DNA of 34,380 bases from a virus. The notes beneath the pieces are model-generated. The model was not told where the DNA came from, made no database searches, and saw only the letters and a program-made list of their open reading frames with translations. Shown here piece after piece: positions 15,289 through 29,190 of the stretch (position 1 is the stretch's first letter; each line of letters opens with the position of its first letter). Made by a program: the position numbers and the translations under genes. The stretch spans positions 1 through 34,380 of IMG/VR virus record IMGVR_UViG_3300025117_001653, one strand, 5' to 3'.

Positions 15289-16800
15289 TCAGTATTCGCT
15301 CCGGGATGTGCTGGGATCGTGATAGGCGCCGGCGAACTGATCCGAGGCCAGATTGCCGAACCGGACGCGGTCGGCGTCGAAGGCCAGCTTGATCGTGGCG
15401 ATGGGGCCGTGGCGCTGTTTGCCGATGATGACCTCGGCCTGGTTCTCCAGCCGGGTCAGGTCTTCCTGCCATTGCAGGTGTTCGGGCGTGCCTTCCTTGG
15501 GCTCGGCCCGGCTCAGGTAATAGGCCTCGCGATAGACGAACATGACGCAGTCGGCGTCCTGTTCGATGGAGCCGGATTCTCTCAGGTCCGACAGCTGGGG
15601 CCGCTTGTCCTCGCGCTGCTCGACCTGGCGCGACAGCTGCGACAGGGCGAGGATCGGCACGCTCAGTTCCTTGGCCAGGGCCTTCAGGGCGCCGGTGATC
15701 TCGCTGACCTGTTCCACCCGATTGGCGTCGCGCCGGCCGGTCGAGGCCGTGGCCAGCTGCAGATAGTCGACGATGATCAGATCCAGCCCGTGCTGCCGCT
15801 TCTCGCGCCGCGCCCGGGCCGCCAGCTTGGCGATGGGCAGGCCGCCGGTGGCGTCGATGGCCAGGGGCGCCTGGGCGATCTCTATGGCCGCGTCGCGCAG
15901 CCGGGCGTATTGCGACGCGTCGATGTCGCCCTTGCGCAGCTTGTCGGACGACACGCCCGCCGCATCCGACAGGATCCGCATCGCCAGCTGTTCGGCGCTC
16001 ATCTCCAGCGAAAAGAACAGAACCCGGCCGCCGGACACGGTGCGAGCCCCGCCCGGCGCGTCCGGATCGGCCGTATATTCCCAGGCGCGGGCGACGTTGA
16101 AGGCGATATTGGTCGCCAGGGCCGTCTTGCCCATGGACGGTCGGCCGGCCAGGATCAGCAGGTCCGACGGGTGCAAGCCTCCCAGGCTTCGATCCAGATC
16201 GGTCAGGCCCGTGGCCAGCCCGGCCAGCTTGCCGTCCCGCTCATAGGCGGCGGCGGCCATCTCGACCGCGCCCGACAAGGCCTGACCGAAGCGGACCACG
16301 CCCTGGCCGTTCGTCCGTCCGGCCTCCATGATCCGGAAGATCTCGCTCTCGGCCGCCTCGGCCACGGCGCGCACGTCCTGGTCGGGGTCGTGCGCCTCGG
16401 TCTTCAGGCCGTCGCCGATGCGGATCAGGGCGCGGCGGCGCGCCTGTTCGATCACCGACCGGGCGTAGTCGGACGCCGTCGCGGCCGGGGGCGCGTGATC
16501 GACCAGGTCCGCCAGATAGCGCAGGCCGCCGTACTGGTCGAAGGCGGGGTCCAGCTTCAGCCGGTCCGTCATCAGGGTCGGGTCGGCCAGCATCCCCTGA
16601 CGGATCGAGGCCTCGATCCCCGCCCACAGGCGCGCGTGATAGGGCTCGTGGAAATGCTCGGCCGAAAGCACGTCGGGCAGACGTTCGAACACGGCGTTGT
16701 CGAACAGGACGCAGCCCAGCAAGGCCTGTTCGGCCTCCAGATTGGCGGGCAAGGCCTGGGCCGGAGCCGAGGTCTGCGCGTTCGCGGCGGGCGGGATCAT
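15289..16800 (-). CDS. dnaB: Replicative DNA helicase DnaB
   Basis: A 503-residue hexameric helicase. The N-terminal domain (about 20-160: NLEAEQALLGCVLFDNAVFE) is the DnaB_N fold. The RecA-like domain has Walker A GRPSMGKTA (219-227), FSLEMS (263-268), Walker B LIIVDYLQL (341-349), and DLRESGSIEQDAD (405-417). It loads at the phage origin with the adjacent replication protein and unwinds the fork. The ATG at 16800 overlaps the nuclease stop (ATGA); an alternative GTG lies 6 bases upstream. Length fits the family. Confidence 0.95.
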   Translation of the reverse strand: MIPPAANAQTSAPAQALPANLEAEQALLGCVLFDNAVFERLPDVLSAEHFHEPYHARLWAGIEASIRQGMLADPTLMTDRLKLDPAFDQYGGLRYLADLVDHAPPAATASDYARSVIEQARRRALIRIGDGLKTEAHDPDQDVRAVAEAAESEIFRIMEAGRTNGQGVVRFGQALSGAVEMAAAAYERDGKLAGLATGLTDLDRSLGGLHPSDLLILAGRPSMGKTALATNIAFNVARAWEYTADPDAPGGARTVSGGRVLFFSLEMSAEQLAMRILSDAAGVSSDKLRKGDIDASQYARLRDAAIEIAQAPLAIDATGGLPIAKLAARARREKRQHGLDLIIVDYLQLATASTGRRDANRVEQVSEITGALKALAKELSVPILALSQLSRQVEQREDKRPQLSDLRESGSIEQDADCVMFVYREAYYLSRAEPKEGTPEHLQWQEDLTRLENQAEVIIGKQRHGPIATIKLAFDADRVRFGNLASDQFAGAYHDPSTSRSEY

Positions 16801-17198
16801 TCGCACGACCGCCCGCGCAGGGGCACGCCCCAGGCCTTCAGGGCGCCCTCGACCTCCGCCAGGCTGCGGCAGATCAGATAGGGCGCGCCCAGGGCCCGCA
16901 CGTCCTCCTCGAAGGCCGACTGTTCGGCGCTCTGGCGGCCGTTCTCCGGCGCCTTCAGTTCGATGAAGCCGACCCGGCCCTCGGGCAGGACGAAGACCAG
17001 ATCGGCCACGCCGGGCCGCACGCCCAGGGCCTTCAGCAGTTCCTGTTCAAACCGCTTGCGCGTCCCCCTCTGGTTCGGGACATGGAAGAAGACGGTCGCG
17101 GGCGACGCCACCCTCAGGAACTGCACCACCAGCTTTTGCAGAGCCTCTTCCGGCCGCTTCGCTGGCGCGCGGCGAGGTTTGACGGTCATGTCCATCAT
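16797..17198 (-). CDS. VRR-NUC domain nuclease
   Basis: A 133-residue single-domain nuclease of the VRR-NUC type. E18 in PEEALQKLVV, then NQRGTRKRF, GVRPGVADLVF with D66, and VGFIELKAP with E80 and K82, form the PD-(D/E)XK active site. Stand-alone phage VRR-NUC proteins are thought to resolve branched DNA. It is coupled by four-base overlaps to the gene before it and to dnaB after it, so it belongs to the replication/recombination set. Confidence 0.9.
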   Translation of the reverse strand: MMDMTVKPRRAPAKRPEEALQKLVVQFLRVASPATVFFHVPNQRGTRKRFEQELLKALGVRPGVADLVFVLPEGRVGFIELKAPENGRQSAEQSAFEEDVRALGAPYLICRSLAEVEGALKAWGVPLRGRSCE

Positions 17199-17464: not shown

Positions 17465-17796
17465 GCCGCGACCCTCCAGAGGTGGCAGCGGTCTTCGATT
17501 TCCTTGAACGGAGGCTCGGTCTCCTCCTCCGTCCAGGGAAGCCAAGTCCGGGCCATAGCGACGCAGCACGCCCAGCACCACCGCCAGGACATAAGATCGC
17601 CGTCGAATCTGTCGCACCGGTAGCGATGGCGCTCGCCCATTCCGATAGGGCCGCCGCAGAAATGGCACTCTGGATGCGGTTTTCGGGCCGTCACCATCTT
17701 GTCGACGAAGGTCTTGTCGTCCGAACCGCCGAAGTCACCGGCGAAGGGATCGTAGGCGATCACGTCCGCCTCGAACTCTGCGAAGATGTCCATCAT
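17461..17796 (-). CDS. Small Cys-rich (zinc-ribbon-like) protein
   Basis: A 111-residue protein starting MMDIFAEFEADVIAYDPFAG; its first ATG overlaps the methyltransferase stop (ATGA). The acidic N-terminus is followed by CHFCGGPIGMGERHRYRC and, further on, WCWACC, which together could bind zinc. It may be an adaptor for the large helicase-methyltransferase encoded just upstream. Function is not recognised. Confidence 0.7.
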   Translation of the reverse strand: MMDIFAEFEADVIAYDPFAGDFGGSDDKTFVDKMVTARKPHPECHFCGGPIGMGERHRYRCDRFDGDLMSWRWCWACCVAMARTWLPWTEEETEPPFKEIEDRCHLWRVAA

Positions 17797-20354
17797 GCCG
17801 CGACCCTCGGCTCGTCCAGCAGGTCGAACAGGCTGGGCACCGCCTTCTCGCGCGCCGCCGCCTCCACATAGGCGACGCCGTCCAGGAAATAGCCGGGGTT
17901 CAGTTCGATCCCGGCGCCGCGCCGGTTCAGCTTCAGGGCGCGGAAGGGTACGGTCATCAGCCCGCCGAACGGATCCAGCACCAGTTCGCCCGGCTGGCTG
18001 AACTGGACGATCAGCCGGTCGACGATGTCGAAGGGCAGGGGGCACAGGTGTTTCTCCGCCCCCTTGGCGGACTGGGCCGTGTTCAGGCTCAGCATCTGGG
18101 CCACGTCGGTCCAGATGTCGGGATGCCACGACTGGGGCGGCAGCAACATGAAGGTGGGCGGCAGCTGGCCCACGGCCTCCAGCGTCTCGCCGATGCGGAC
18201 GTGGTGGGCGTAGTCATAGACCTCATGGGCGCTGAAATCGCGGAAGGTGCGATAGACGACGTCCGCCGGCAGGCCCAGCAGCTCCTCGCCCGTCACCAGC
18301 CGGTCGCCGCTCGAGCGCTGATAGCCATGGGCGTCCAGCTGCCAGCGGGCGCGGGTGTAATCGGCCTTGTCCTTGACCACCGGATCGTCGGCGTAACCGT
18401 TCGAGGCGTCCGACGGGGGCTTTCTGAACCGCAGGACGTATTCCGGCAGGCCGACGCCCATCCGCGTCCCGTCCTTGCACTGTTCCGACCAGCCCAGCCG
18501 ATAGGTCTGGTTGTTCTCCCGCACCACGTCGGTGACGTTGGTCGTCTGGCCCAGATAGGCGAAGCCGGCCTCGCGGAAGACGCGGCGGCAGTCGTCGCCG
18601 AACGGATAGACCGTCTGGAAGCCCAGGCCGGTCATGCCGCCGGGCACGATCCGGTCCTTGATGTGGATACAGGCCACCCGGCCGGGTTTCAGCACCCGGA
18701 ACAGCTCGGCCGTCAGGAACCGCATCTGGTCCCAGAAATGGGCGTTGTCGTCGGTATGGCCGAAGTCGTTGTAGCTCGGCGTATATTCGTACTGGGTCGA
18801 GAAGGGGATGGAGGTGACGATCAGGTCGACCGTGTCTTCCTCCCAGGTCCGCAGCTCCATCACGCAGTCGTTGTTGACCAGGCGGTGATGTTCGCCGGTC
18901 ACCTCGATCCGCTCGGCGGGGTCGAACAGGGCCCGCGTCAGTTCGCCGGCGAAGGCGGCCTGGGACAGGCCATAAGTCTTGATGATCTCGCGCATCTTTT
19001 CCATCATTTCGTTGTGCTGGGCCCACTTGCGCTGAAGGGTCCGCAGAACCTCGCGCTCGCTCTCCGCATGGATGATGTGGATCTCGACCTGCCGGGTCTG
19101 GAGAAAGCGGAAGATCCGGTGACAGGCCTGGATGAAGTCGTTGAACTTGAAGCCGATGCCGACGAAGATCGCCTTGTGGCAGTGGCGCTGGAAGTTGCAG
19201 CCCGAGCCCGCGATCACCGGCTTGGCCGCCAGATGCTGGAAAGCCCCGTCGCTGAACCCGATGATCGTCTCTTCCCGCTCGACCAGATCCTGACTGCCGT
19301 AGACGGACCGGACGCCCGGCACGGCGGCCTCGATGGCGGCCCGCTCGGCCTCCAGGTCGTGCCACAGCAGGAAGTGATCGTCCGGGGCCGCCGCCAGGAT
19401 CTCGCCCATCTTGGCGATCCGGGCGTCCAGGGTGTCGCGCTTCTCCCGCGCCGCGTCGACGACCCCGTGGGTGGCCTCGCGGAACAGGCGGACCTGACCC
19501 CATTTCTCGGTCCCGGCGCCCTCGGCCAGATCGACCTGGACCTCGTGATAGACCACCTTCAGCGGCGGCAGATCATAGCCCTCGTCCGAAAAACCCAGGT
19601 CGCTGGGGCGCTGCACGAACAGGCCCCAGGAGGCGATCCACAGCCAGAACTCCCGTTCCTTGTGGGGGTGCAGCGTCAGCTGGTCGGCCTTCTCGCTGTT
19701 GCGGCGGAAGAACCGCGTCTTGGCCTGGCCCACGTCCATGACGTCCAGGAAGGCGGCATAGGCCAGAAGCTCGATATAGTCGTTCGGCGACGGGGTGGCG
19801 GTCGCCACATAGCGATAGGGCACGCCCCGGCCGGTGCGGTCGGCCGCGCCGTCGGCGCCGAACAGCCGCATGAACTCGCGGAAGGTCTTGGACCCGCCGA
19901 AGCCGCGCAGGCACGAGGCCTCGTCCAGGCTGACCACCGTAAAGGCAGCCGGGTCCAGCTTGCCGTCGCGGATCGTCTCATAGTTGGTCAGGTACAGACC
20001 CTCGGGGTCGGTCGCCTCCTCGATCCGGCGGATGAAGCGGATCGTCAGGCCCAGCATGGCCGCGTCCCGAACGAACTCCTGGCGCACCCCCAGCGGCGCG
20101 ACGATCAGGCCCATTCCGCCGGCGCGCACCCGGGTCAGGCGCACGGCCTCCAGCTGGATGATGCTCTTGCCCAGGCCGAAGGCGGCGAAACAGGCGCGGC
20201 GGCCGCCCGCCACCATCCAGCGCACGATGGCCCGCTGATGCGGCTTCAGCAGCGGATGGATCTCGCGCTCGTCGATCTCGAAACCGACGGCGGGCGGGGT
20301 GCAGGCCTTGGCGGCGATGAATGCCTGATAGGGGTCGTGAAAGGCCAGGCTCAT
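17793..20354 (-). CDS. Helicase-DNA methyltransferase fusion
   Basis: An 853-residue two-part enzyme. The N-terminal SF2/SNF2 part has AAFGLGKS (57-64, Walker A), LDEAS (143-147, motif II), TATP (185-188) and HRIFRFLQTR (412-421, motif VI). The C-terminal part is an amino-methyltransferase with the catalytic box TSIPF (514-518) before the SAM-binding box LDPFGG (793-798) and GIELN (815-819), the beta-class order used by N6-adenine or N4-cytosine enzymes. No nuclease domain is seen, so it looks like an orphan, possibly protecting phage DNA or altering methylation. The box reads SIPF where most enzymes have a PP pair. Starts 3 bp after the upstream stop. Confidence 0.87.
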   Translation of the reverse strand: MSLAFHDPYQAFIAAKACTPPAVGFEIDEREIHPLLKPHQRAIVRWMVAGGRRACFAAFGLGKSIIQLEAVRLTRVRAGGMGLIVAPLGVRQEFVRDAAMLGLTIRFIRRIEEATDPEGLYLTNYETIRDGKLDPAAFTVVSLDEASCLRGFGGSKTFREFMRLFGADGAADRTGRGVPYRYVATATPSPNDYIELLAYAAFLDVMDVGQAKTRFFRRNSEKADQLTLHPHKEREFWLWIASWGLFVQRPSDLGFSDEGYDLPPLKVVYHEVQVDLAEGAGTEKWGQVRLFREATHGVVDAAREKRDTLDARIAKMGEILAAAPDDHFLLWHDLEAERAAIEAAVPGVRSVYGSQDLVEREETIIGFSDGAFQHLAAKPVIAGSGCNFQRHCHKAIFVGIGFKFNDFIQACHRIFRFLQTRQVEIHIIHAESEREVLRTLQRKWAQHNEMMEKMREIIKTYGLSQAAFAGELTRALFDPAERIEVTGEHHRLVNNDCVMELRTWEEDTVDLIVTSIPFSTQYEYTPSYNDFGHTDDNAHFWDQMRFLTAELFRVLKPGRVACIHIKDRIVPGGMTGLGFQTVYPFGDDCRRVFREAGFAYLGQTTNVTDVVRENNQTYRLGWSEQCKDGTRMGVGLPEYVLRFRKPPSDASNGYADDPVVKDKADYTRARWQLDAHGYQRSSGDRLVTGEELLGLPADVVYRTFRDFSAHEVYDYAHHVRIGETLEAVGQLPPTFMLLPPQSWHPDIWTDVAQMLSLNTAQSAKGAEKHLCPLPFDIVDRLIVQFSQPGELVLDPFGGLMTVPFRALKLNRRGAGIELNPGYFLDGVAYVEAAAREKAVPSLFDLLDEPRVAA

Positions 20355-20357
20355 GCT

Positions 20358-21413
20358 CTAGGCGTCCTTCAGTTCGGCCGCCCCGGCGGGACGGGCCATG
20401 CGGGGGGTGTCGGAAACGGGCGCGGGCGCATGGGCCGCCAGTCGGGCGCGGCCGGCCGGGCCAACCGACAGCCAGGCGTGGCGTCCGCAATAGGGGCCGC
20501 AGCCGGGGGCTTCGACCGTGCGGGCGTTGCAGACCATGTGATCGCGGGACCCCTCGACGGTCACGGGCCAGCGGCACCCGGACTTGTGGTCGATCAGGCG
20601 CGCCGGCGTCGTGCCGGGCAGGGGCGCCCAGGCGGGATGCGAACGGGGAAAGGGCTCGACCGGTTCGGACGTCGCCGCCGCGGCGAAAGCGGGGGACTCC
20701 GCCGGCCGGGGGGCCGAAGCCGCCGGTTCGACGGCCTTGCGTGGGCGGCCGCGGCGTGTCGCCTGTCCTGGTCCGGTCGGGCCGCCCGTCCCGGCACCCG
20801 TCTTGGGAGCCGCCTTGGGGGCCGCGCCGACCTTGCGGGGCCGACCGCCCCGGTTCGGTCCGGGCGCGACTTCAGGAAAGACCTCGCCGGTCTCGCGCGC
20901 GACCCGAGCGAACAGGGCCTTGGTCGCCGTCAGGCTCAGACCCTCGCGCTTGGCGATCGCGCGCGGGCCCTCGCCGGACCGCCGCGCCTTCAGCATCCGC
21001 GTCTCGCGGGCCAGGTCGCGACGGGGATCGACATAGTCGGGGTCGCCGCGTCGACGCCGGGCCGAGACCGTCAGGGGCGCATCGGCCGAGGGCGACGCGG
21101 CGGCGCGGGCCAGATCCGCCCGCACCCGCGCCAGGGCCTCGCAATAGACGCCCCGGCCGACCAGGCCGGAAGGCGACATCTGCACCACATGCACCCCCAG
21201 CAGCTTGGCGCACTGGATGGCCGGCCGGTCCGTCGGGTGGATCAGGGCCGCGGCCGCCAGCAGCCGCACCCGGCCCCGGCCGTCGCGGACCGGCGCGAAG
21301 ACCGTCTGCGGGTCGAACCCGTATTCGGCGGCGGCGGCGACCACCGCGCGCGCCACCATCCCTGCCGTCAGCGGGCCCGGAACCAGGTCGGAAGTCGCGG
21401 CGGGGGCGGTCAC
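20358..21413 (-). CDS. AT-hook protein with GcrA-like zinc domain
   Basis: The GTG start at 21413 overlaps the previous stop as GTGA, giving 351 residues. Residues about 10-100 are helical with a weak resemblance to the DnaA C-terminal domain; about 145-175 form an HTH-like unit (RAIAKREGLSLTATKALFAR). Two AT-hooks follow, GGRPRK (189-194) and RGRPRK (221-226). The C-terminus has CRWPV (280-284), C295, and GPYCGRH (306-312), the CxWP...C...YCxxH pattern of GcrA. It is probably a DNA-binding regulator. The DnaA likeness is tentative; AT-hooks and Cys/His spacing are seen directly. Confidence 0.8.
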   Translation of the reverse strand: MTAPAATSDLVPGPLTAGMVARAVVAAAAEYGFDPQTVFAPVRDGRGRVRLLAAAALIHPTDRPAIQCAKLLGVHVVQMSPSGLVGRGVYCEALARVRADLARAAASPSADAPLTVSARRRRGDPDYVDPRRDLARETRMLKARRSGEGPRAIAKREGLSLTATKALFARVARETGEVFPEVAPGPNRGGRPRKVGAAPKAAPKTGAGTGGPTGPGQATRRGRPRKAVEPAASAPRPAESPAFAAAATSEPVEPFPRSHPAWAPLPGTTPARLIDHKSGCRWPVTVEGSRDHMVCNARTVEAPGCGPYCGRHAWLSVGPAGRARLAAHAPAPVSDTPRMARPAGAAELKDA

Positions 21414-21724
21414 GACCGGACCTCCGCCAGATTCTCCCACAGGGCGACGGCCAGCTGCACCACGCATCCGGTCTGGGCCTCGGGACAGACGGGCGACGCG
21501 AACGACACCTCGGCGACCAGCCGCTCATTGACCCGCCACACCCGCGCCGTGCGCAGGAAGGTCGCGCCCTTCTCGGACCACCGCCGCAGGAACATCTGCC
21601 CCGTGGCGTTGGCCGAATACAGCACCATCTCCACCGGCACGGCGAAGACCTCGGCCGGCCCCGACGGCGCCGGGATATTCAGAACCGGCGGCGCCGCCCC
21701 GGCCATTTCGGGTCCGCCGCGCAT
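21410..21724 (-). CDS. Small protein after the C5 methyltransferase, unknown
   Basis: A 104-residue protein (MRGGPEMAGAAPPVLNIPAP) whose ATG overlaps the methyltransferase stop by one base; an internal MAGAAP start is possible. The body is beta-rich (EVFAVPVEMVLYSANATG) with two cysteines near the end (SPVCPEAQTGCVVQ). No family recognised. It is coupled on both sides to DNA-modification and regulator genes. Confidence 0.7.
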   Translation of the reverse strand: MRGGPEMAGAAPPVLNIPAPSGPAEVFAVPVEMVLYSANATGQMFLRRWSEKGATFLRTARVWRVNERLVAEVSFASPVCPEAQTGCVVQLAVALWENLAEVRS

Positions 21725-23715
21725 CAGGCGGCCGCCTGCAGTCGGCGTGACAGCAACGGGTCGTTGGCGGCGATCAGGGCCGCCGCGGGGGGCGGGCTGA
21801 CGCTGTTGCCCGCCATCCGCGTCTGGGCCGTCTTGGTCAGGGCTCGGCCGTCCGCCGTGCGGTCGATCACATAATCGCCGGGGAAACCCTGCGCCCCATA
21901 CAGTTCGCGGGGCGTCAGCATCCGCATGCCGATGTCCGCGATCTGCCAGACCTCGTCGACGCCCTCGGCGTTCGGCACGATCACCAGGCCGAATCTCAAC
22001 CGGGCCTGGGCCGTCGCCAGAGGATCGGCGCGCTCCGCTTCGGTCGGGTCGCCGAAATGCTCGCGCAGGAAGGACAGCACCTCTGCGCGCCGTGAGCCGG
22101 GCTCGCCCTCCAGCGCTTCCAGCGACAGCTGAACCGACCGTTGATGGCTTCCTGCCGCCAGTATGGTGCTGACCGGGGCCGAGGCCTCATGGCCGACGAC
22201 GCCCGTATTGGCCCGTTCCATGAAGGCGGCGACAGGCGCGTGACGGTCCTTTGTGACCACCGTCGGCATTGGCGCGTCGATCCGACCGCCATCGCCTGTG
22301 CCGTAGTAGCTGGTCAGACAGGCGGCGGCGACATAGCTTTTGCCGCCCGCGCCATCGGTCATCACCGTAGGGTGGGGCTCGGCCATGTCCCGTCCGACGG
22401 CCGTTCCGAACTGACGGCCCAGCACGGCCGTCACCAGCCCGTGACGGGGTGCGCCCGCCATGGCGGTATGCAGCGGGTCGGACGGATCGGTCCCGACCGA
22501 GTTCTCGCTGAACTTGGTGATATGGGCCAGCACCGGCGCCAGAGGCACGCCGCAGCCGGGGCGCTTGACGTAGGAATTGGCCGTCACGGTCGGCAGGGGC
22601 TCGCCCGCATCCGCGCCGGTGCTCTCGGCCCGGAACTTCGTGATATGCGCGGCGGCGAGATTGAAACCACCCGCGCCGGAACTCGTGACAGTGCGCGCAG
22701 GATCCTCCGCCGACCAGGCCCGCAAACCGGCGCCCGGACGATCATCCCCATAGGCCGATCCGACCAACGTCGGCGCAACCACGCCCAGCTCGCCCCGGTT
22801 CGCGGCCGTGATCGTCTTGAACGGCTCGGCCACGTCGTGGTTCGGCCGCTCGCCCGCATGGGTCACGGGCACGATGAAGGGCGACTTCGCCTCTATGACG
22901 AACTTCTTGATCCCCTTGGCGATCCGCTTCTGGGTCTTTGGCGCCAGGGCCTTCTTCCGGCCGAAGATCGACGGGCAGGGCAGGTTCCAGTCGATGATCT
23001 CCGCCGCCGCACGCCACGGCTTCATCGGCGCGTCGAACAGGCTGGGGGCCTTCAGCTTGGCGCGCGACGCATGGGTCTTTTCGGGCCAGACGATGGGCCG
23101 GCCGTCTCGGCGCGCGACCAGGAACAGCCGCTTGCGCGTGGTCGGCGCCCCATAGTCGGCGGCGACCAGCTCCCGCCACTCGACGGCGTACCCCAGGGCT
23201 TCCAGCTGGCTGACCCAGGTGCGGAAGATCTCCCCGCGCTTTTCCTTGATCGGACGGTTGTCGTCGCCCAGCGGGCCCCAGTCCTGAAACTCCTCGACGT
23301 TCTCCAGGAAGATGCAGCGCGGCTTCACCTTGGACGCCCATTTCACGACGACCCAGGCCAGGGCGCGGATCTTCTTGTCGGCGGGCTTGCCGCCGCGCGC
23401 CTTCGAATGGTGGGTGCAGTCGGGCGAGGCCCACAGCAGGCCGACAGGCCGCAGATTGCCGTGCGCGTCGGAACAGGCCTCGACCGGATCGACCTCGAAC
23501 ACGTCGCAGCAGTAATGCTTTGTGCCCGGATGGTTCGCCGCGTGCAGGGCGACCGCGTTCGGATCGTGGTTCACCGCCACGTCCGGGTGGCGACCGGTGG
23601 CCAGCTTGATCGCGGTCGACGCCCCGCCGCCGCCGGCGAACAGGTCCACGATCATCTCGTCACGGCCCAGCCCGTCAGGCTGGACGGGCGATGTCAGGCT
23701 TTCGGCGGCGATCAT
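21724..23715 (-). CDS. C5-cytosine DNA methyltransferase with repeat-rich target region
   Basis: A 663-residue enzyme starting MIAAESLTSPVQPDGLGRDE at an ATG overlapping the gcrA stop (ATGA). Motif I is VDLFAGGGGAS (23-33); the catalytic loop is ASPDCTHHS with Cys100; motif VI is FLENVEEF (136-143); motif VIII is RKRLFLVARR (194-203); motifs IX-X are TPRELYGAQGFPGDY and QTRMAGNSVSPPP. Between VIII and IX, about 280-525 is filled by some seven imperfect 33-40-residue repeats (HITKF...G...EPLPTVT). It methylates the 5-carbon of cytosine in DNA; its target cannot be read. No partner nuclease is present, suggesting an orphan enzyme. Confidence 0.92.
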   Translation of the reverse strand: MIAAESLTSPVQPDGLGRDEMIVDLFAGGGGASTAIKLATGRHPDVAVNHDPNAVALHAANHPGTKHYCCDVFEVDPVEACSDAHGNLRPVGLLWASPDCTHHSKARGGKPADKKIRALAWVVVKWASKVKPRCIFLENVEEFQDWGPLGDDNRPIKEKRGEIFRTWVSQLEALGYAVEWRELVAADYGAPTTRKRLFLVARRDGRPIVWPEKTHASRAKLKAPSLFDAPMKPWRAAAEIIDWNLPCPSIFGRKKALAPKTQKRIAKGIKKFVIEAKSPFIVPVTHAGERPNHDVAEPFKTITAANRGELGVVAPTLVGSAYGDDRPGAGLRAWSAEDPARTVTSSGAGGFNLAAAHITKFRAESTGADAGEPLPTVTANSYVKRPGCGVPLAPVLAHITKFSENSVGTDPSDPLHTAMAGAPRHGLVTAVLGRQFGTAVGRDMAEPHPTVMTDGAGGKSYVAAACLTSYYGTGDGGRIDAPMPTVVTKDRHAPVAAFMERANTGVVGHEASAPVSTILAAGSHQRSVQLSLEALEGEPGSRRAEVLSFLREHFGDPTEAERADPLATAQARLRFGLVIVPNAEGVDEVWQIADIGMRMLTPRELYGAQGFPGDYVIDRTADGRALTKTAQTRMAGNSVSPPPAAALIAANDPLLSRRLQAAA

Positions 23716-24311
23716 GCCCAGGCTCCGGTGATGGAAGAGGTTCGACGCGGCAGGCGGGCCAGGCGTTCGATCCCGCCGCGGTGCGACTGGACCGTCACGG
23801 TGCGGTCGACGGCCGCCGTCTGATGACAGGCGCAGTAGGAGCGCCCGGCGCGAGGCCGGCCGCAGAAGCCGAAGTCCGGGCTCTTGGGATCGCCCACGGG
23901 CCATTTGCAGCCGTTCGGGGCCAGATCGCTGATCAGGCCCCGGTGCAGGGCGGTCAGGGCCAGGGCGGCCTTGACCTCGGCGCGGCGGGCGTGACGACGG
24001 TCCAGCGGCGACGGGACCGGGGGCTTGGGCGGCTGCGGCTTGGGCGCGGGCCTCCGTTCGGCCGTTCGGGTCGCCCGTTGGCGGCGCGGCGTCAGACTCT
24101 GGCCGTTGCGCTTGGGACGGTCGGGCAGGCCCAGCCGGTGCGCCTGGCTGATGCAGGCGTTCTTGCTGACGCCCAGCTTGATCCCGATGGCGCGGAAACA
24201 GGTGTCGGCCTGATGTTCGTCGACGATCACCGCCAGCCGCGCGGCGGGCCATCGGTCCGTCGCGAACTCGTCAAGGCGCGCCCGCAGACGCGAATAGTCA
24301 AACACGGCCAT
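23712..24311 (-). CDS. gcrA: GcrA family cell-cycle regulator
   Basis: A 199-residue GcrA homologue. The HTH region FRAIGIKLGVSKNACISQAH followed by RLGL (39-62) matches the GcrA DNA-binding domain, and the C-terminus has the family signature GCKWPVGDPKSPDFGFCG (134-151), then SYCACH (158-163) with Cys135, Cys150, Cys160 and His163. In Caulobacter GcrA works with sigma-70 at promoters carrying CcrM-methylated GANTC. It lies two genes into the leftward early operon and is coupled to the C5 methyltransferase. Slightly longer than the host protein (173 aa) owing to a Pro-rich linker and a basic C-terminal tail. A phage copy may redirect host RNA polymerase. Confidence 0.92.
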   Translation of the reverse strand: MAVFDYSRLRARLDEFATDRWPAARLAVIVDEHQADTCFRAIGIKLGVSKNACISQAHRLGLPDRPKRNGQSLTPRRQRATRTAERRPAPKPQPPKPPVPSPLDRRHARRAEVKAALALTALHRGLISDLAPNGCKWPVGDPKSPDFGFCGRPRAGRSYCACHQTAAVDRTVTVQSHRGGIERLARLPRRTSSITGAWA

Positions 24312-24476
24312 GCCGCACCCCGTTCATCGCCGTCGCCCCCGCCTCAGGGGCGCGCGGCTTTGCTTCATTCTGGATGGACCCCGCCACCGACCAGGCGCGG
24401 CGCCTGCGGCCTCTGACGGGCCGTCGGGCGTCTCAAGGGGTTCGCGGGCCGTGGACCGGCCCTGCGGATTGGGCCG
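24312..24476. other. Spacer before gcrA, no gene seen
   Basis: These 165 bp separate gcrA from the upstream small gene, an unusually long gap for this operon. On the minus strand a GGGGTG lies before the gcrA ATG. Frames here lack a ribosome site and normal codon use. An internal promoter is possible but none is convincing. Confidence 0.4.
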
Positions 24477-24725
24477 TCAGGCCGGGCCGGTCGCGGCCGT
24501 TCGGCCCGCGCCGGAATGCGCCGAACAGGCGAGCGGGCTTGACGTCCGCTCCGTCGGCGACGAAGTTTGGTTAAAATCAACAAGACCGGGCGAACCGGCG
24601 GTGATCACATGACCTTCCCCACACATCGGGGGCTCAGCGACCTGGGCCTCAACCATCGGCCGACCTGCGGCCAGACGCTCCAGTTCGGACGCCAGCGGCG
24701 TGCGGATGTGGACGAACCCGCTCAT
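24477..24725 (-). CDS. Small early protein of unknown function
   Basis: The 82-residue product starts MSGFVHIRTPLASELERLAA at an ATG overlapping the Cro-like gene stop (ATGA). The first half looks like ordinary coding sequence; the second half (from about residue 45) is Ser/Thr-rich with poorer codon bias and includes an AT-rich patch at about 24557-24590. It may be a truncated or fast-evolving protein. No family recognised. Confidence 0.6.
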   Translation of the reverse strand: MSGFVHIRTPLASELERLAAGRPMVEAQVAEPPMCGEGHVITAGSPGLVDFNQTSSPTERTSSPLACSAHSGAGRTAATGPA

Positions 24726-24964
24726 GCGGCGGCCTTCTGCGTCGGCACGCCCGCCGGCCATTCGGCGGCCTCGGGCCAGTTCGCGCCGAACCAGCGCATC
24801 ACTTCGTCGTACTTGCCCGCCGTAAACCCGGCGCCGTCTTCCAGACGGGGGAAGAACCGCCAGTCGTTAGCGGCCTGGCGGCCGACCGTCGAGATCGACA
24901 GGCCGGTCGCAGCGACGAAGGCCGCGGCGCAGGTGACCAGGTGATGTCTCAGTTCGTCTTCCAT
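24722..24964 (-). CDS. Cro-like HTH regulator, first gene of leftward early operon
   Basis: An 80-residue protein, MEDELRHHLVTCAAAFVAAT, with a probable HTH at GLSISTVGRQAANDWRFF (21-38) and a KYDEVMRWFGANWPE helix. It is divergent from the repressor gene and separated from it by three operators, the position of cro. The -10 of its promoter ends only 7 bases before the ATG, so its mRNA may start at or next to the ATG. It could be Cro-like or a transcription activator; small size and position support the first. Confidence 0.78.
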   Translation of the reverse strand: MEDELRHHLVTCAAAFVAATGLSISTVGRQAANDWRFFPRLEDGAGFTAGKYDEVMRWFGANWPEAAEWPAGVPTQKAAA

Positions 24965-24971
24965 GAAGCGG

Positions 24972-25001
24972 AAGATAGGCGGATGTTTCCGCCTATTGCA
25001 A
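24972..25001 (-). promoter_or_regulatory. Leftward early promoter (PR-like) with operator in spacer
   Basis: On the minus strand, TTGCAA (25001-24996) and TATCTT (24977-24972) are separated by 18 bases. The spacer is almost entirely the operator at 24977-24994, so repressor binding would exclude RNA polymerase. The expected start point is at or within a base or two of the ATG of the Cro-like gene. Confidence 0.65.
24977..24994. promoter_or_regulatory. Repressor operator 1
   Basis: AGGCGGATGTTTCCGCCT, perfect 7-bp half-sites AGGCGGA/TCCGCCT around a 4-bp centre. It fills the spacer of the leftward promoter. The complementary-strand form is identical to the operator at 26233-26250. Confidence 0.8.
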
Positions 25002-25017
25002 GCGGAAACATCCGCCG
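25000..25017. promoter_or_regulatory. Repressor operator 2
   Basis: AAGCGGAAACATCCGCCG, the same half-sites with mismatched outer bases. Centre 23 bp from operator 1. It abuts the -35 of the leftward promoter and could let repressor dimers cooperate. Confidence 0.75.
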
Positions 25018-25034
25018 GGACCTACGTCCGTTTT

Positions 25035-25052
25035 TGGCGGATAAATCCGCCA
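25035..25052. promoter_or_regulatory. Repressor operator 3, overlapping repressor start
   Basis: TGGCGGATAAATCCGCCA, near-perfect dyad. Its last base is the A of the repressor ATG. GATAAA inside it (25040-25045) could be the -10 of a leaderless repressor transcript. Binding here should shut off repressor synthesis at high concentration. Confidence 0.75.
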
Positions 25053-25696
25053 TGTCCCTAAAGGCGAACGTCGAGCGCCGGCTCTCGGAGCTCGGTATCA
25101 ATCCTTACGAGGCCGCCCGCCGGGGCGGGCTGGAGCGGAACTTTGTCCAGGACATACTTCACGAAAGGAAGCGCAGCGTCCGGGGTGACAACCTGGACCG
25201 GCTGGCGAAAGGGCTGGACTGCGATCCCTCAGACCTCATCCCTTCAGGCGGACGCAGGGCGGAAAAGGTCGCGTATCGCGAAGTGGTAGGTTTTGCGGGG
25301 GCTGATCCTGAGGGAACGATTCTCTTCGCACACGGGCAGGGGACAGGGGACTACGCCCCGGTGCCGCCCAACGGCTCGCCGACGGCCCGGCCGATCGAGG
25401 TTCGGGGTCACTCCATGCCCTTCTTTGCGGAGGACGGCACCCTGATCTGGTTCGACGATCAGAAATCCCACCCCGATCCGGAAATGATCGGTCATGTGGT
25501 CGTGGTCCAGCTGGACACGGATGAGGTTCTGATCAAGCGGCTGCTGCGAGGATCCGAAAAGGGTCTCTTCGACCTCGAAAGCATTGCAGGCCCTACCAGG
25601 CGCGACGTGCGCCCCGTCTGGGTCGCGCGGATCATCGCGATCATACCCCCTCTTGAGGCGCGCCGGATCATTCGGCGCGGCGGGATGGCCGCTTAG
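25052..25696 (+). CDS. CI-like prophage repressor (XRE HTH plus S24 peptidase)
   Basis: A 214-residue lysogeny repressor. The N-terminal domain (MSLKANVERRLSELGINPYE onward, about 1-65) is an XRE-like HTH; the C-terminal LexA/CI domain has the nucleophile region VRGHSMPFFAEDGTLIWFD and the catalytic Lys in DTDEVLIKRLL. RecA-stimulated self-cleavage should remove repression after DNA damage. The ATG at 25052 was chosen over an upstream in-frame ATG (24941) because the latter would run through the operators and the Cro-like start. Operator 3 overlaps the start, implying autoregulation. Its stop overlaps the convergent membrane gene by four bases. Confidence 0.9.
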   Translation: MSLKANVERRLSELGINPYEAARRGGLERNFVQDILHERKRSVRGDNLDRLAKGLDCDPSDLIPSGGRRAEKVAYREVVGFAGADPEGTILFAHGQGTGDYAPVPPNGSPTARPIEVRGHSMPFFAEDGTLIWFDDQKSHPDPEMIGHVVVVQLDTDEVLIKRLLRGSEKGLFDLESIAGPTRRDVRPVWVARIIAIIPPLEARRIIRRGGMAA

Positions 25697-26112
25697 CGCA
25701 CGAAAACCAGCAGGGCGACAACGGCGGCGGCGATCAGGCCGCCGAACAACGCTAGGGCGCCCCAGCTGTTTTGTCCGAAGATCTTCGGCTCGGAACTTGC
25801 GCCGTCGGGAGACTCCAGCGCGGCGGGCGTCTCAACGGCTGGCGTGACGGCCCGAGCACCCGCAGTCATCGCGGAGCCGACCAAAAGCACGCATCCCGAG
25901 ACGAATGCGAACCCGCCGACCAGCACCATCACGAGGGCGCGAAGCATGAGTTGGAAGTTGACCGTTCGGGGCGCGTCCACAAGGCCGACATAGGGGACGT
26001 AGCGGCTCTCAGGCTGGACGGTCACCTCGGCCGTGGCGCCGAAGATGACAAGCGCCGCCCCAGCGATCAGCAAGACGGCGGCGGCGGTTTTGAAACCTAC
26101 GGATGATGTCAT
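25693..26112 (-). CDS. Three-helix membrane protein beside the repressor
   Basis: A 139-residue protein starting MTSSVGFKTAAAVLLIAGAA with GGAGG 6 bases before the ATG. Membrane segments are about 9-28, 55-81 and 117-138; residues 82-116 are a soluble Pro/Glu/Ser loop. It is transcribed towards the repressor, sharing the TTAG at their ends. In lysogens, small membrane proteins in this position often give superinfection exclusion, so expression from the prophage is plausible. No homologue recognised; the role is inference from place and topology. Confidence 0.75.
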   Translation of the reverse strand: MTSSVGFKTAAAVLLIAGAALVIFGATAEVTVQPESRYVPYVGLVDAPRTVNFQLMLRALVMVLVGGFAFVSGCVLLVGSAMTAGARAVTPAVETPAALESPDGASSEPKIFGQNSWGALALFGGLIAAAVVALLVFVR

Positions 26113-26159
26113 GAAATCCTCCCGAGGGTGGACGATGACGGGTCCGGCAATACTCGTCA

Positions 26160-26177
26160 AAGCGGGTGTTCCCGCCT
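26160..26177. promoter_or_regulatory. Degenerate operator
   Basis: AAGCGGGTGTTCCCGCCT keeps dyad symmetry and matches operator 1 at 15 of 18 positions; the A/T pair next to the centre is changed to G/C on both sides. It lies upstream of the membrane gene and could bind the repressor weakly or the Cro-like protein. Confidence 0.5.
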
Positions 26178-26202
26178 CTGTCCGCTACGCACAAATGCGT
26201 AA

Positions 26203-26220
26203 TAGCGGATAAATCCGCCT
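26203..26220. promoter_or_regulatory. Repressor operator 4
   Basis: TAGCGGATAAATCCGCCT, matching operator 3 except at the outer bases. It lies just upstream of the -35 of the rightward early promoter, 30 bp centre to centre from operator 5. Confidence 0.75.
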
Positions 26221-26227
26221 TTTCGCG

Positions 26228-26255
26228 TTGACAGGCGGAAACATCCGCCTTTAGT
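26228..26255 (+). promoter_or_regulatory. Rightward early promoter (PL-like) with operator in spacer
   Basis: A perfect -35 TTGACA at 26228-26233 and a TTTAGT -10 at 26250-26255 are 16 bp apart, with operator 5 filling the spacer. It drives the rightward operon that begins 26 bp downstream. Architecture mirrors the leftward promoter. Confidence 0.7.
26233..26250. promoter_or_regulatory. Repressor operator 5
   Basis: AGGCGGAAACATCCGCCT, the exact reverse complement of operator 1, placed between the -35 and -10 of the rightward promoter. Confidence 0.8.
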
Positions 26256-26280
26256 CTCCCCCTCATACCGAGGGAGCGTC

Positions 26281-26913
26281 ATGCACGACCAAGCCACACC
26301 ATCGCAGCCTGCCACGACGGAAACGGTCGTAACCCGCGCCGTCGGCGCCACCATCGGCGCGCTCGGCGTGGCGGCCGCCATCGGCCTCTCGTCGGGCGGT
26401 CATGACCTGCTGGGCGCGACCATAGGCGTCGCGGCCGCGGGCGCGGTCATCGCCATCGACACCGTCGCCCTGCGCCGACGGGTGCGTCGAGAGGATCGCT
26501 TGGTCGCCGTCGCCGCCGCCGATGACGTCCGTTTCGTGATCGGCGCCGCCGACCCCGGCGACTTCACCTCCTTTTCCGACCGGTCCGACGACCTGTCGAT
26601 CCCCCCGTTCGCGCCGCTTCCCCACGGCGCGGATACGCGCGGCCCGGCCCCCTCCGGCCCTCCCCCGGCCGGGCCGCGCACCCCTCTTTTGCCGGCGGAC
26701 CTCAAGGCGCCGGTCTTCGCCCTGCCGCCCCTGGTCCAGGCCGGACTTCTGATCCTGGCCGAGGCCGACCGCGACCCGACCGATCAGGACACGATCAGAA
26801 TTCCCGTCGCCCTCGTCGGCCGCCTCCGCCGCGCCGTCTCGGCCGAGATCGAGGCCCAGGCCGGAGCGACCGCCGCCTATTCCAGGGCGGCCCAGCTGAA
26901 GGCTGTGACCTGA
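26281..26913 (+). CDS. Membrane protein, first gene of rightward early operon
   Basis: A 210-residue protein (MHDQATPSQPATTETVVTRA) with two hydrophobic segments (about 19-38 and 44-62), followed by a basic RRRVRRED turn, an acidic region, a Pro-rich stretch (about 108-140) and a C-terminal helix region. GGGAG lies 8 bases before the ATG. It is the first product after induction from the rightward promoter. No family recognised; lambda's analogous region carries host-takeover functions, so a similar role is possible. Confidence 0.75.
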   Translation: MHDQATPSQPATTETVVTRAVGATIGALGVAAAIGLSSGGHDLLGATIGVAAAGAVIAIDTVALRRRVRREDRLVAVAAADDVRFVIGAADPGDFTSFSDRSDDLSIPPFAPLPHGADTRGPAPSGPPPAGPRTPLLPADLKAPVFALPPLVQAGLLILAEADRDPTDQDTIRIPVALVGRLRRAVSAEIEAQAGATAAYSRAAQLKAVT

Positions 26914-27038
26914 TGGATCCGCGATCGACCGCCGCAGGTCTCGTCGGCTGGGTCGTCGGCTGCGCCGTCCACCGGCCGCGCGACCTCCTCTTACTCGCCG
27001 CCCTGGTGGGCGGCTGCATCTGGAGCCTGGGCCTGTGA
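26913..27038 (+). CDS. 41-residue single-pass membrane peptide
   Basis: ATG at 26913 overlaps the preceding TGA by one base (TGATG), and the TGA at 27036-27038 overlaps the next GTG as GTGA. The product MDPRSTAAGLVGWVVGCAVH continues into a hydrophobic segment LLLLAALVGGCIW. Coupled overlaps at both ends and normal codon use support it as a real gene. Function unknown. Confidence 0.65.
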   Translation: MDPRSTAAGLVGWVVGCAVHRPRDLLLLAALVGGCIWSLGL

Positions 27039-27268
27039 CCGGCGCCGCCGTTTTTTCCGCCGTCGCCGCGCTCAAAACCCTGCGCCGGATCCTGCAGCGT
27101 CTGGCCCACAGGGCCGAGAGCGCCCGCGCTTGGCGCCGGTTCCAGGCCTCGGTCCGCAAACAGCGCGAAGCCGCCCGCGCCGACCACGCCCGCACCCGAG
27201 AAATCAACCAGCGCCAGTCCGACCGGCTTCACGCCGCGCTCCGGGCTGGCCGTCAACAAGGAGTTTGA
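27035..27268 (+). CDS. Small basic coiled-coil protein
   Basis: A 77-residue protein with a GTG start overlapping the previous stop. After an N-terminal hydrophobic patch (MTGAAVFSAVAALKTL) it is a long Arg/Ala/Gln-rich helix (ARAWRRFQASVRKQREAARA), likely a coiled coil with one membrane anchor or DNA contact. The hydrophobic start plus charged helix is spanin- or anchor-like, but nothing proves this and lysis genes would be unexpected here. Confidence 0.65.
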   Translation: MTGAAVFSAVAALKTLRRILQRLAHRAESARAWRRFQASVRKQREAARADHARTREINQRQSDRLHAALRAGRQQGV

Positions 27269-27272
27269 CTCT

Positions 27273-27587
27273 GTGACCGATCCTGCCTTCGCCCCCGCCG
27301 CTGCGGCCCAGGCGCTTCACGCCCAGCTTGCCGAAACCTCGGCCGAGGTCCTGACCGCCACGGCCCAGGGTCGTCTGCGCACCATCGTCGAGCGCCTGGA
27401 ACGTCTCGAGGAGGACAAACAGGCCGTTCTGACCGACATGAAGGAGGTCTTCGCCGAGGCCAAAGGCGAGGGTTACGACATTCCCGTCCTCAAACAGGTG
27501 CTGAAGATCCGCGCCACCGACAAGGCGAAGCGGCAGGAGAAGGACGCGATCCTCGACCTGTACATGTCTGCCCTGGGGGAAATCTGA
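27273..27587 (+). CDS. gapR: GapR (DUF2312) nucleoid-associated protein
   Basis: The 104-residue product has an N-terminal extension of about 30 residues and then the GapR domain: LRTIVERLERLEEDKQAVLT, KEVFAEAKGEGYDIPVLKQV, LKIRATDKAKRQEKDAIL, nearly the consensus of the DUF2312 family. In Caulobacter GapR binds overtwisted DNA ahead of forks and transcription and helps topoisomerases. A GTG start has AAGGAG 9 bases upstream. As an early phage gene beside a sliding clamp, it probably supports phage replication or alters host supercoiling. Host gapR is usually about 90 residues. Confidence 0.93.
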   Translation: MTDPAFAPAAAAQALHAQLAETSAEVLTATAQGRLRTIVERLERLEEDKQAVLTDMKEVFAEAKGEGYDIPVLKQVLKIRATDKAKRQEKDAILDLYMSALGEI

Positions 27588-28051
27588 TGTCCGGCGGAGC
27601 CGCCGCCGTATCCGCCGGGCCGGCTCCGCAGCCGGCCCTCTTCTCCGGCCTTCAGGTCCTGACGCCCAGCACGACGGACACGACCAGCGCCGACGTGCGG
27701 GCCAACGCCCGGTTCGAACTTCACCGGGCCCTGGATCGCGGCAATGACGCCGACCTTCTGGCCTGGGTTCGCCGCTGGGGCGAGGGCCTGACGGACGGGA
27801 TCGAACATCATGTCGCCGAGGCCGAATACCTCAATGAGAAGCTGGACGAGAGCGACGACTGGTCCAGCAGCTATGACAACGCCAGGCTCCAGGAAGCCGA
27901 AACCGGCGTCCAGAACGCGCATGAAGCCGTCGCCGACGCCCGAAACAAGCTCGCCAATCTGGTCCAACCGGACGTCCAGGCCGCCGTCGTCGATCTGGAC
28001 GAGGCGCTGAAACATCTGACCGGCGCCCTCAAGGAAATCGACGCCCTATGA
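27587..28051 (+). CDS. Coiled-coil protein between gapR and dnaN, unknown
   Basis: A 154-residue acidic protein (MSGGAAAVSAGPAPQPALFS) starting with TGATG overlap. The C-terminal two thirds are long heptad-like helices (ARLQEAETGVQNAHEAVADA, then DLDEALKHLTGALKEIDAL). It overlaps the dnaN start by four bases (ATGA). It may bind one of its neighbours; no family recognised. Confidence 0.75.
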   Translation: MSGGAAAVSAGPAPQPALFSGLQVLTPSTTDTTSADVRANARFELHRALDRGNDADLLAWVRRWGEGLTDGIEHHVAEAEYLNEKLDESDDWSSSYDNARLQEAETGVQNAHEAVADARNKLANLVQPDVQAAVVDLDEALKHLTGALKEIDAL

Positions 28052-29190
28052 AACTGACCATCGAACAGGCCGTGCTGCAAAAGGCCTTGGCCCGTGTCGT
28101 CGCCATCGCGCCGCGCAAGAACACCATCCCGATTCTCGGCAATCTGATGATAGACGCCGAGACCGATCCGGACGGCCGTGTCTGGCTGGTCGCCACCGAC
28201 CTGGACCGTGAGGCCCGCGTCTGCGTCGAAGCTCAGGTCGAACGGCCGGGCCGCACGACGGTCCCCGCCCTTCTGTTCGACCAGATCGTGCGCAACGCGC
28301 CGTCAGGGGCCGACGTCCTGCTGGACCTCGACGTCGAGCGGGATGCGCGCATGCTGACCCGGTTCGGGCGGTCGCGCTACAACGTTCCTGTCTTGCCGGC
28401 GAGCGATTTTCCGGTCTGGAAGACACCGAAATGGCGGGCTGAGTTCGCGGCGGACGCCGTATCCGTCTCCGGCATGATTGAGCGGGCGGCCTTCGCCGTC
28501 TGCACCGACGAAACCCGCCATTATCTTCAGGGCGCCTATCTCCATGTGGCCCAGGATGCGGACGGGCCTCGGCTGCGCTTTGTCGCCACCAACGGTCACG
28601 TCCTGGCCTGGGGGCAGGGCGATCTGACGGCGAAGGACACGGACTGGGAAGGCGTCATCGTCCCAACCATGACCTTGTCTCAGTTCAAAGCCGGCCTCGA
28701 CGGTCGGGCAGGGCCGGTCACCCTGCGGATCGCCGCCGAAGGCGTTCAGATGGAGACCAGCGACCTGATCATCACCAGCAAGGTCATATCCGGCGCCTAT
28801 GTCGACTATGTCCGACTGGTGCCCAAGACCTGGGCGCGCGAGGTCCGGGTCAATCGCCGTCTGCTGGCGGACGCGGTGACGCGGGTCAACATCATGACCA
28901 CGGACAAGGCATCCTCGATCAAACTGGCCTTCGCGCCCGAGACCATCACCCTGACGGTGCGCAACGACCTCGCGGGCCAGGTGGTCGAGGAAATCGACGC
29001 CGAGTTCACCGGCGAGCCGTGCGACGTCGGTTTCAGCGCCCGTTACCTGCTTTCGGCGCTGAAACAGACCGAGGCGGACGACATCGTCATGGGCTTCTCC
29101 GACGACGCCTCGCCGATGCGGATCGAGCCCCACTCCGATGACCCGGAATATGGCGTCGCCTTCGCCATCGTCATGCCCCAGCGGGTCTGA
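28048..29190 (+). CDS. dnaN: DNA polymerase III sliding clamp (beta subunit)
   Basis: A full-length, 380-residue beta clamp. It starts MKLTIEQAVLQKALARVVAI, close to the DnaN start, followed by NTIPILGNLMIDAE; domain II contains CTDETRHYLQGAYLHV and RFVATNGHVLAW (the RHYL-G and ATDGHRL motifs of DnaN); domain III ends YGVAFAIVMPQRV, the conserved MPMRL-like C-terminus. It forms a ring that tethers DNA polymerase. Phages rarely carry a bacterial-type clamp. ATG overlaps the preceding stop (ATGA). Confidence 0.95.
   Translation: MKLTIEQAVLQKALARVVAIAPRKNTIPILGNLMIDAETDPDGRVWLVATDLDREARVCVEAQVERPGRTTVPALLFDQIVRNAPSGADVLLDLDVERDARMLTRFGRSRYNVPVLPASDFPVWKTPKWRAEFAADAVSVSGMIERAAFAVCTDETRHYLQGAYLHVAQDADGPRLRFVATNGHVLAWGQGDLTAKDTDWEGVIVPTMTLSQFKAGLDGRAGPVTLRIAAEGVQMETSDLIITSKVISGAYVDYVRLVPKTWAREVRVNRRLLADAVTRVNIMTTDKASSIKLAFAPETITLTVRNDLAGQVVEEIDAEFTGEPCDVGFSARYLLSALKQTEADDIVMGFSDDASPMRIEPHSDDPEYGVAFAIVMPQRV

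What the first reader, a model, noticed from the sequence alone, without database searches (positions are those of the whole stretch)
20358..27587. One phage carrying GcrA (twice), GapR and two DNA methyltransferases: a host cell-cycle takeover set
The leftward early arm encodes a GcrA homologue, a second GcrA-like AT-hook protein, a C5 methyltransferase and an amino-methyltransferase fused to a helicase; the rightward arm encodes GapR and DnaN. In Caulobacter, GcrA reads methylation marks with sigma-70 and GapR manages supercoiling at forks. Having these together under the same repressor suggests the phage rewires methylation-dependent transcription and replication when induced. Motifs are seen directly; the joint role is inference.
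Basis: partly seen in the sequence, partly recalled or inferred. Interest (0 to 1): 0.85.

Follow-up and report, generated by a model that had tools for sequence, protein, structure and literature searches.

The report
Phage early genes echoing host cell-cycle regulators
A temperate phage, probably of Caulobacter-like bacteria, keeps its own copies of a host transcription cofactor (GcrA) and a replication-fork protein (GapR), plus a sliding clamp and two DNA methylases, on two gene arms controlled by one repressor; the arrangement recurs in related phages, so it is a real module, but that it rewrites methylation-dependent host transcription is unproven.

Summary
The genes are there. Pfam confirms GcrA (81 bits), GapR (99), DnaN, a C5 methylase and an N6/N4-methylase-helicase. 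The "second GcrA" is not one: only its last ~55 residues match GcrA. They are the sigma-interacting domain (SID; E 6.5e-9 with an independent phage SID profile; Foldseek top hits are C. crescentus GcrA), joined to a different N-terminus with a predicted HTH and two AT-hook-like cores. "Under the same repressor" is well supported: palindromic operators lie at both early promoters (3 left; 2 plus 1 weak right) and nowhere else. Three other phages have different operator sequences at the same two places. The set recurs: two lineage relatives keep GcrA-C5-helicase/methylase divergent from CI-GapR-DnaN, and a more distant prophage has the same layout. GcrA homologues abut the helicase/methylase in five other contigs. 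The SID fusion is absent from one relative, so it is optional. Not supported: GANTC-based rewiring of the phage's own promoters. GANTC is depleted and absent from both early promoter regions; the methylases belong to common phage families, not CcrM. Phage GcrA more plausibly acts at host promoters or another site. Phage GcrA (2012) and GapR (2025) are published; the combination and the SID fusion appear new.

The parts
17793..20354 (-). SNF2-type helicase fused to an N6/N4 amino-methyltransferase (HelMT)
   Evidence: PF01555 64.7 bits; phrog_16 E 4.5e-115; motif TSIPF and DPFGG invariant in relatives
20358..21467 (-). GcrA2: sigma-interacting domain of GcrA on a different N-terminus, with predicted HTH about residues 148-193 and AT-hook-like cores GGRPRK and RGRPRK; start codon uncertain
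   Evidence: Pfam GcrA C-terminus 17.5 bits, sub-threshold; phage SID profile E 6.5e-9; AF2 core pLDDT 86-95, Foldseek top hits 5yix, 7ye1, 7ye2 = C. crescentus GcrA
21410..21724 (-). conserved small protein between C5 and GcrA2, unknown
   Evidence: 92% identical in relative, dN/dS 0.20; no family
21724..23715 (-). C5 cytosine DNA methyltransferase; ATG overlaps the GcrA stop (ATGA)
   Evidence: PF00145 101.5 bits; phrog_116 E 1e-100; sequence
23712..24311 (-). phage GcrA with DNA-binding and sigma-interacting domains
   Evidence: PF07750 81.1 bits; 7ye1/5yix match; 75% identity in relative
24722..24964 (-). first gene of the leftward arm, unknown
   Evidence: phrog_7669 E 1e-20; 66% in third phage
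24978..25051 (.). left operators: palindrome GCGGA-N4-TCCGC at 24979, 25002, 25037
24971..25000 (-). putative leftward early promoter TTGCAA-N18-TATCTT with an operator in the spacer
   Evidence: read by eye from the sequence; the consensus scan did not list it
25052..25696 (+). CI-like repressor (HTH + S24 peptidase-like C-terminus); start revised from 24941
   Evidence: PF13443 33.3 bits, PF00717 21.3 bits (sub-threshold); phrog_4 E 2e-15
26162..26249 (.). right operators at 26205 and 26235, degenerate copy at 26162
26228..26256 (+). putative rightward early promoter TTGACA-N17-TTAGTC with an operator in the spacer
   Evidence: read by eye from the sequence; the consensus scan did not list it
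26281..26913 (+). first gene of the rightward arm, unknown
   Evidence: 62% in relative
27273..27587 (+). GapR
   Evidence: PF10073 99.3 bits; NCBIfam GapR 132.3 of 140; PDB GapR E 1e-28
27587..28051 (+). conserved protein between GapR and DnaN, unknown
   Evidence: 61% in relative, partial match in third phage
28048..29190 (+). DnaN sliding clamp
   Evidence: PF00712/PF02767/PF02768; TIGR00663 202.3 bits
15289..16806 (-). DnaB replicative helicase, distal in the leftward arm
   Evidence: PF03796 323.5 bits

Best explanation
This is the early (replication and host-interaction) region of a temperate tailed phage, probably of Caulobacterales. One CI-type repressor sits between two divergent arms and is predicted to bind a palindrome repeated at both early promoters. 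On derepression the leftward arm makes GcrA, a C5 methylase, the GcrA2 fusion, a helicase/amino-methylase and DnaB; the rightward arm makes GapR and a sliding clamp. Most likely working: GapR, DnaN and DnaB equip phage replication forks in a host whose own supply of such factors varies with the cell cycle. Phage GcrA docks on region 2 of host sigma-70 through its SID and shifts RNA polymerase toward promoters it selects, chiefly host S-phase genes or non-GANTC sites. GcrA2 docks the same way but brings another DNA-binding part. The methylases mark phage DNA, most simply as protection from restriction. Shown here: gene identities, operator-like palindromes at both promoters, recurrence, SID match. 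Inferred: repressor and sigma binding, promoter targets, enzyme activity, timing and host.
For: Families. Operators: exact GCGGA-N4-TCCGC occurs 5 times, all in the two promoter regions (0.3 expected). The relative has a different repressor HTH and TCGTGC-N5-GCACGA at the same two places. A third phage has TGGGA-N4-TCCCA with identical spacings +23/+35 and +30, and a more distant prophage has TTTGCG-N5-CGCAAA on both sides of its CI. Synteny of five genes plus CI in three lineage members and in L342. Purifying selection. SID. GapR DNA-contact residues K34, K42, K49, K59 kept and R63 changed to K.
Against: No expression, binding or methylation data. The phage GcrA DNA-binding domain is diverged, so its site may not be GANTC, and no phage promoter with a conserved GANTC was found. 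GapR has lost K56, K60 and K66 contacts. GcrA and GapR often occur one without the other in phages. Host assignment rests on gene similarity only. The GcrA2 tail structure was predicted from an alignment that contains GcrA relatives, so the fold match is not fully independent.
Confidence: 0.58

Rival explanations
1. Ordinary replication and anti-restriction cargo: each gene serves phage DNA replication or protection on its own, and their togetherness reflects only the early-gene cluster of this phage lineage, with no cell-cycle strategy.
For: GapR relatives in 151 phage records and at least 583 viral contigs; GcrA relatives in 142 contigs; methylases in phages of many phyla; GcrA and GapR together only in about 20% of contigs carrying either.
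Against: GcrA is a transcription cofactor with no replication or protection role of its own; GcrA homologues sit directly against the methylase genes in several phages; the whole set is kept in three lineage members and in L342.
Confidence: 0.22
2. Writer and reader: a phage methylase marks promoters and the adjacent phage GcrA activates sigma-70 there, a private copy of the CcrM-GcrA circuit with another recognition site.
For: GcrA overlaps C5 by ATGA here and abuts C5 in L083; GcrA abuts HelMT in L308, L320, L334, L337, L359; all 25 GcrA/HelMT pairs are on one strand, 22 with GcrA upstream.
Against: Known GcrA reads m6A in GANTC; here GANTC is depleted and absent from early promoters; C5 makes a different mark; site specificities are unknown; adjacency may be translational convenience.
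Confidence: 0.12
3. Decoy or anti-GcrA: the SID proteins compete with host GcrA for sigma-70 and shut off host S-phase genes.
For: GcrA2 and a 71-aa Rhizobium phage protein carry a SID without a GcrA DNA-binding domain.
Against: GcrA2 has its own predicted HTH and AT-hook-like cores; the window's other GcrA keeps both domains.
Confidence: 0.08

Closest known systems
phiCbK-like phage GcrA (gp222; PMC3556154)
   Same: phage-encoded GcrA-family protein proposed to adjust the host replicative state
   Different: giant Caulobacter phages (205-280 kb); here a compact integrase-bearing phage with GcrA in a repressor-controlled operon with methylases, and an added SID fusion
Agrobacterium phage Atu_ph08 (PMC6630229)
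   Same: GcrA (gp5) and a cytosine DNA methylase (gp7) two genes apart by number
   Different: GapR, DnaN or helicase/methylase not reported in the passage read; layout not compared here
Erythrobacter phage R34L1 GapR (PMC12185513) and many phage DUF2312 proteins
   Same: phage-encoded GapR
   Different: described as an auxiliary gene, GcrA not mentioned; GapR is in fact common in phage records, mostly annotated as hypothetical
CcrM-GcrA circuit of Caulobacter (PMC3667746, PMC7403470)
   Same: GcrA with DNA-binding domain and sigma-interacting domain
   Different: methylases here are not CcrM; GANTC is scarce; specificity unknown
Brevundimonas prophage operon Bresu_0058-0084 (PMC7987155)
   Same: link between GcrA and prophage transcription
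   Different: there host GcrA drives prophage genes; here the phage carries its own GcrA
Lambda-type CI switch (from general knowledge)
   Same: one repressor between divergent early arms with multiple operators at both promoters
   Different: operator sequence and number differ; no Cro identified

Membership tests
GcrA (23712-24311) | PF07750 match over DNA-binding and sigma-interacting domains | tested here: met
   81.1 bits, profile 3-148 of 155; invariant W, N, R, L of the HTH and C-x-W-P..C..YC..H of the SID kept
GcrA (23712-24311) | equivalog of chromosomal GcrA (NCBIfam NF050816 cut-off 280) | tested here: not met
   60.6 bits: family member, not the chromosomal orthologue
GcrA (23712-24311) | binding of m6A-GANTC and of sigma-70 | not testable with these tools
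   needs binding assays
GcrA (GcrA2, 20358-21467) | GcrA DNA-binding domain | tested here: not met
   Pfam matches only profile 107-152; different N-terminus
GcrA (GcrA2, 20358-21467) | sigma-interacting domain | tested here: met
   profile of phage SIDs E 6.5e-9; Foldseek top three hits GcrA, probability 0.77-0.92, E 0.2-0.3; Pfam cut-off itself not reached
GapR | PF10073 / NCBIfam match | tested here: met
   99.3 bits over cut-off 22.6; PRK13694 102.6 over 94; NF052541 132.3 just under 140
GapR | DNA-contacting basic residues | tested here: inconclusive
   K34, K42, K49, K59 kept, R63 to K; K56 to P, K60 to Q, K66 to A
CcrM | NCBIfam CcrM cut-off 830 | tested here: not met
   HelMT 33.7 bits
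C5 cytosine methylase | motifs I, IV, VI, X | tested here: met
   DLFAGGGGAS, SPDC (variant of PPC), ENV, GNSV read in sequence
Beta-class amino-methylase | motif IV [DNS]PP[YFW] before motif I | tested here: inconclusive
   TSIPF then DPFGG, invariant in the six aligned sequences; variant of the canonical motif
CI-type two-arm switch | repressor between divergent arms with shared operators at both promoters | tested here: met
   by sequence; binding itself not tested

The most novel reading that the evidence does not exclude
The phage carries a private epigenetic circuit: its methylase(s) write a mark that its own GcrA proteins read through sigma-70, and GcrA2 shows that phages detach the sigma-docking domain and fit it to new DNA-binding parts, making modular sigma-70 adaptors.
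Probability: 0.12. Interest if true: 0.86.

Novelty: new variant of a known kind. Interest (0 to 1): 0.6.

Why it matters
Phage GcrA and phage GapR were each reported alone. Here they are, with a clamp and two methylases, in one repressor-controlled early region that recurs across phages while the repressor-operator pair is swapped, which argues that the whole region works as a unit. It gives a compact testable system for whether temperate phages override the alphaproteobacterial cell cycle. The SID fusion suggests that the sigma-70 region 2 contact of GcrA is a portable module.

Tried and rejected
(1) Second full GcrA: rejected, no GcrA DNA-binding domain. (2) GANTC as phage promoter signal: rejected for the early promoters; 19 sites in the window, 18 counted in genes; 5 of 15 alignable sites conserved, all within genes. 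A first-order Markov null (162 expected) overstated the depletion; the synonymous-codon null gives 47.6 +/- 5.4 against 18. Such depletion is usual in alphaproteobacterial genomes (PMC3973325), so it is not evidence for GcrA action. (3) Strong co-occurrence of GcrA and GapR across all viral contigs: not shown (12/50 and 11/50; no base rate for alphaproteobacterial phages could be set; the terminase-anchored set was too small). (4) L243 and L042 as complete sets: my own loose profile counted GcrA in both; Pfam finds none in L243 and only a GcrA-type HTH in L042, so I do not count them. (5) Genome scan with GcrA2: no relative; 1 of 299 Caulobacteraceae genomes has only its N-terminal domain. (6) Full-length AF2 model of GcrA2: too poor (pLDDT 41). 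(7) DnaA domain IV resemblance of the GcrA2 N-terminus: an impression only; no Pfam match. (8) The host genome could not be had: the record is a virus contig.
Full report
WHAT THE RECORD IS. The window is an IMG/VR virus record of 34,380 bases with no host genome attached. It runs from capsid, portal and terminase genes through DnaB and the early region to an integrase that ends at the right edge. Host is not known. GapR is 74-78% identical to GapR of Brevundimonas phages, and a Caulobacteraceae metagenome bin holds C5 68% and repressor 67% relatives with a GcrA gene beside C5, so Caulobacterales is likely.

GENES. Pfam, NCBIfam and PHROGs confirm GcrA, GapR, DnaN, the C5 methylase and the helicase/amino-methylase. 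GcrA matches C. crescentus GcrA of solved structures through both domains. GapR matches solved GapR over its whole DNA-binding domain; of the DNA-contacting residues listed in PMC7498317, K34, K42, K49 and K59 are kept, R63 is K, and K56, K60, K66 are lost. GcrA and C5 share an ATGA overlap (sequence).

THE SECOND GCRA-LIKE PROTEIN. Pfam sees only the GcrA C-terminus, below cut-off. I aligned phage SIDs, built a profile from 52 of them without the window's proteins, and searched all 532 open frames of the window: GcrA2 is second only to GcrA itself, 30.1 bits, E 6.5e-9; its tail scores 33.7 bits against at most 14.2 in 5000 shuffles. AlphaFold2 on the tail gives core confidence of 86-95, and Foldseek's three best hits in the whole PDB are GcrA (5yix, 7ye1, 7ye2; probability 0.92-0.77, E 0.2-0.3, short domain). 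The N-terminal 270 residues are not GcrA: a region whose relative occurs in one Caulobacteraceae genome without SID, a predicted helix-turn-helix (low-confidence model) and two AT-hook-like cores. A 71-residue stand-alone SID occurs in Rhizobium phages, so the domain is portable. GcrA2 is missing from the third phage, where HelMT follows the small conserved gene directly.

ONE REPRESSOR, TWO ARMS. The palindrome GCGGA-N4-TCCGC lies at 24979, 25002 and 25037, between the leftward arm and CI, and at 26205 and 26235 (weak copy at 26162) before the rightward arm; exact copies occur nowhere else, 5 seen against 0.3 expected. By eye, each early promoter holds one operator in its spacer; the consensus scan did not list these promoters, so they are proposals. 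In the relative 2734482272 only the C-terminal half of CI is conserved, and TCGTGC-N5-GCACGA occurs four times in 56.5 kb, two at each of the same places. In G429 the motif is TGGGA-N4-TCCCA with the same spacings as in the window (+23, +35; +30), two of the five sites with one mismatch. In L342, a more distant prophage, TTTGCG-N5-CGCAAA occurs three times in 22.5 kb, on both sides of CI. Repressor and operators have changed together while the arms stayed, which is strong comparative evidence of shared control.

RECURRENCE. The relative keeps every gene of the set in order under purifying selection: dN/dS GcrA 0.37, GcrA2 0.30, C5 0.33, GapR 0.35, DnaN 0.52, HelMT 0.16-0.43. G429 keeps DnaB, HelMT, C5, GcrA, CI, GapR and DnaN. 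L342 has GcrA (57 bits), HelMT and C5 on one arm and CI, GapR and DnaN on the other. L042 (Jiella) and L243 have the methylases opposite GapR/DnaN but no full GcrA. GcrA homologues abut HelMT in L308, L320, L334, L337 and L359 and abut C5 in L083; these contigs are partly related to each other, so they count as a few events. In wider sets, 11 of 50 GapR contigs have a GcrA match (8 over cut-off) and 12 of 50 GcrA contigs have GapR (11 over cut-off), without a base rate to compare. Pfam GcrA also rings in one archaeal control genome, so HTH-only matches should be read with care.

MECHANISM. GcrA works by docking its SID on sigma-70 region 2 and recognising methylated promoters with its DNA-binding domain (PMC7403470). 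The phage GcrA keeps both parts, so cofactor action is likely, but where it acts is open. GANTC is depleted in phage genes (18 against 47.6 +/- 5.4 with codon usage kept) and absent from both early promoter regions; conserved sites are all inside genes. Depletion is usual for the class (PMC3973325), and a survey of phage genomes found no uneven placement of GcrA sites (PMC9437464). Host promoters or a different site are therefore the better guess. The methylases are of common phage families, so protection against restriction is their simplest role; the writer-reader idea rests on gene adjacency only. GapR and DnaN, neighbours on one arm here and in most phages that have both, fit fork support.

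PRIOR ART. GcrA in phiCbK-like phages (PMC3556154), in Atu_ph08 (PMC6630229) and in a few prophages; GapR in an Erythrobacter phage, reported as the first (PMC12185513), although 151 phage records hold one. No paper in the searched library holds GcrA, GapR and phage together as whole words; subscription journals are mostly not in it. CcrM-like phage methylases are cited in PMC9437464 and PMC12429752.

VERDICT.

Noticed in passing
window 31602-32084 (+): HD-domain protein like small alarmone (ppGpp) hydrolases: Pfam HD_4 57.7 bits, PDB matches to SpoT/Mesh1-type hydrolases; 91% identical in the relative, not seen in other loci. Could lower ppGpp, which affects cell-cycle entry, or counter an alarmone toxin.
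   Followed up: partly
L086:11980-12195 (Rhizobium phage RHph_TM3_14A) and sub-threshold matches in several genomes: GcrA sigma-interacting domain as a stand-alone 71-aa protein, and short SID-only matches in Methylobacterium and other genomes.
   Followed up: partly
L308, L320, L334, L337, L359: GcrA-family gene directly upstream of the helicase/amino-methylase in five viral contigs.
   Followed up: yes
window 17793-20354: Methylase motif IV reads TSIPF instead of the usual SPP[YF], invariant in relatives from Bradyrhizobium to Clostridia.
   Followed up: no
window 12617-12985 and 16797-17198 (-): Small genes flanking the DnaB region; the second matches VRR-NUC nuclease (26.9 bits), the first has no Pfam match.
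   Followed up: no
window, whole: GATC is over-represented in coding sequence (312 against 207 +/- 9 with synonymous shuffles) and CTGCAG under-represented (9 against 19).
   Followed up: no
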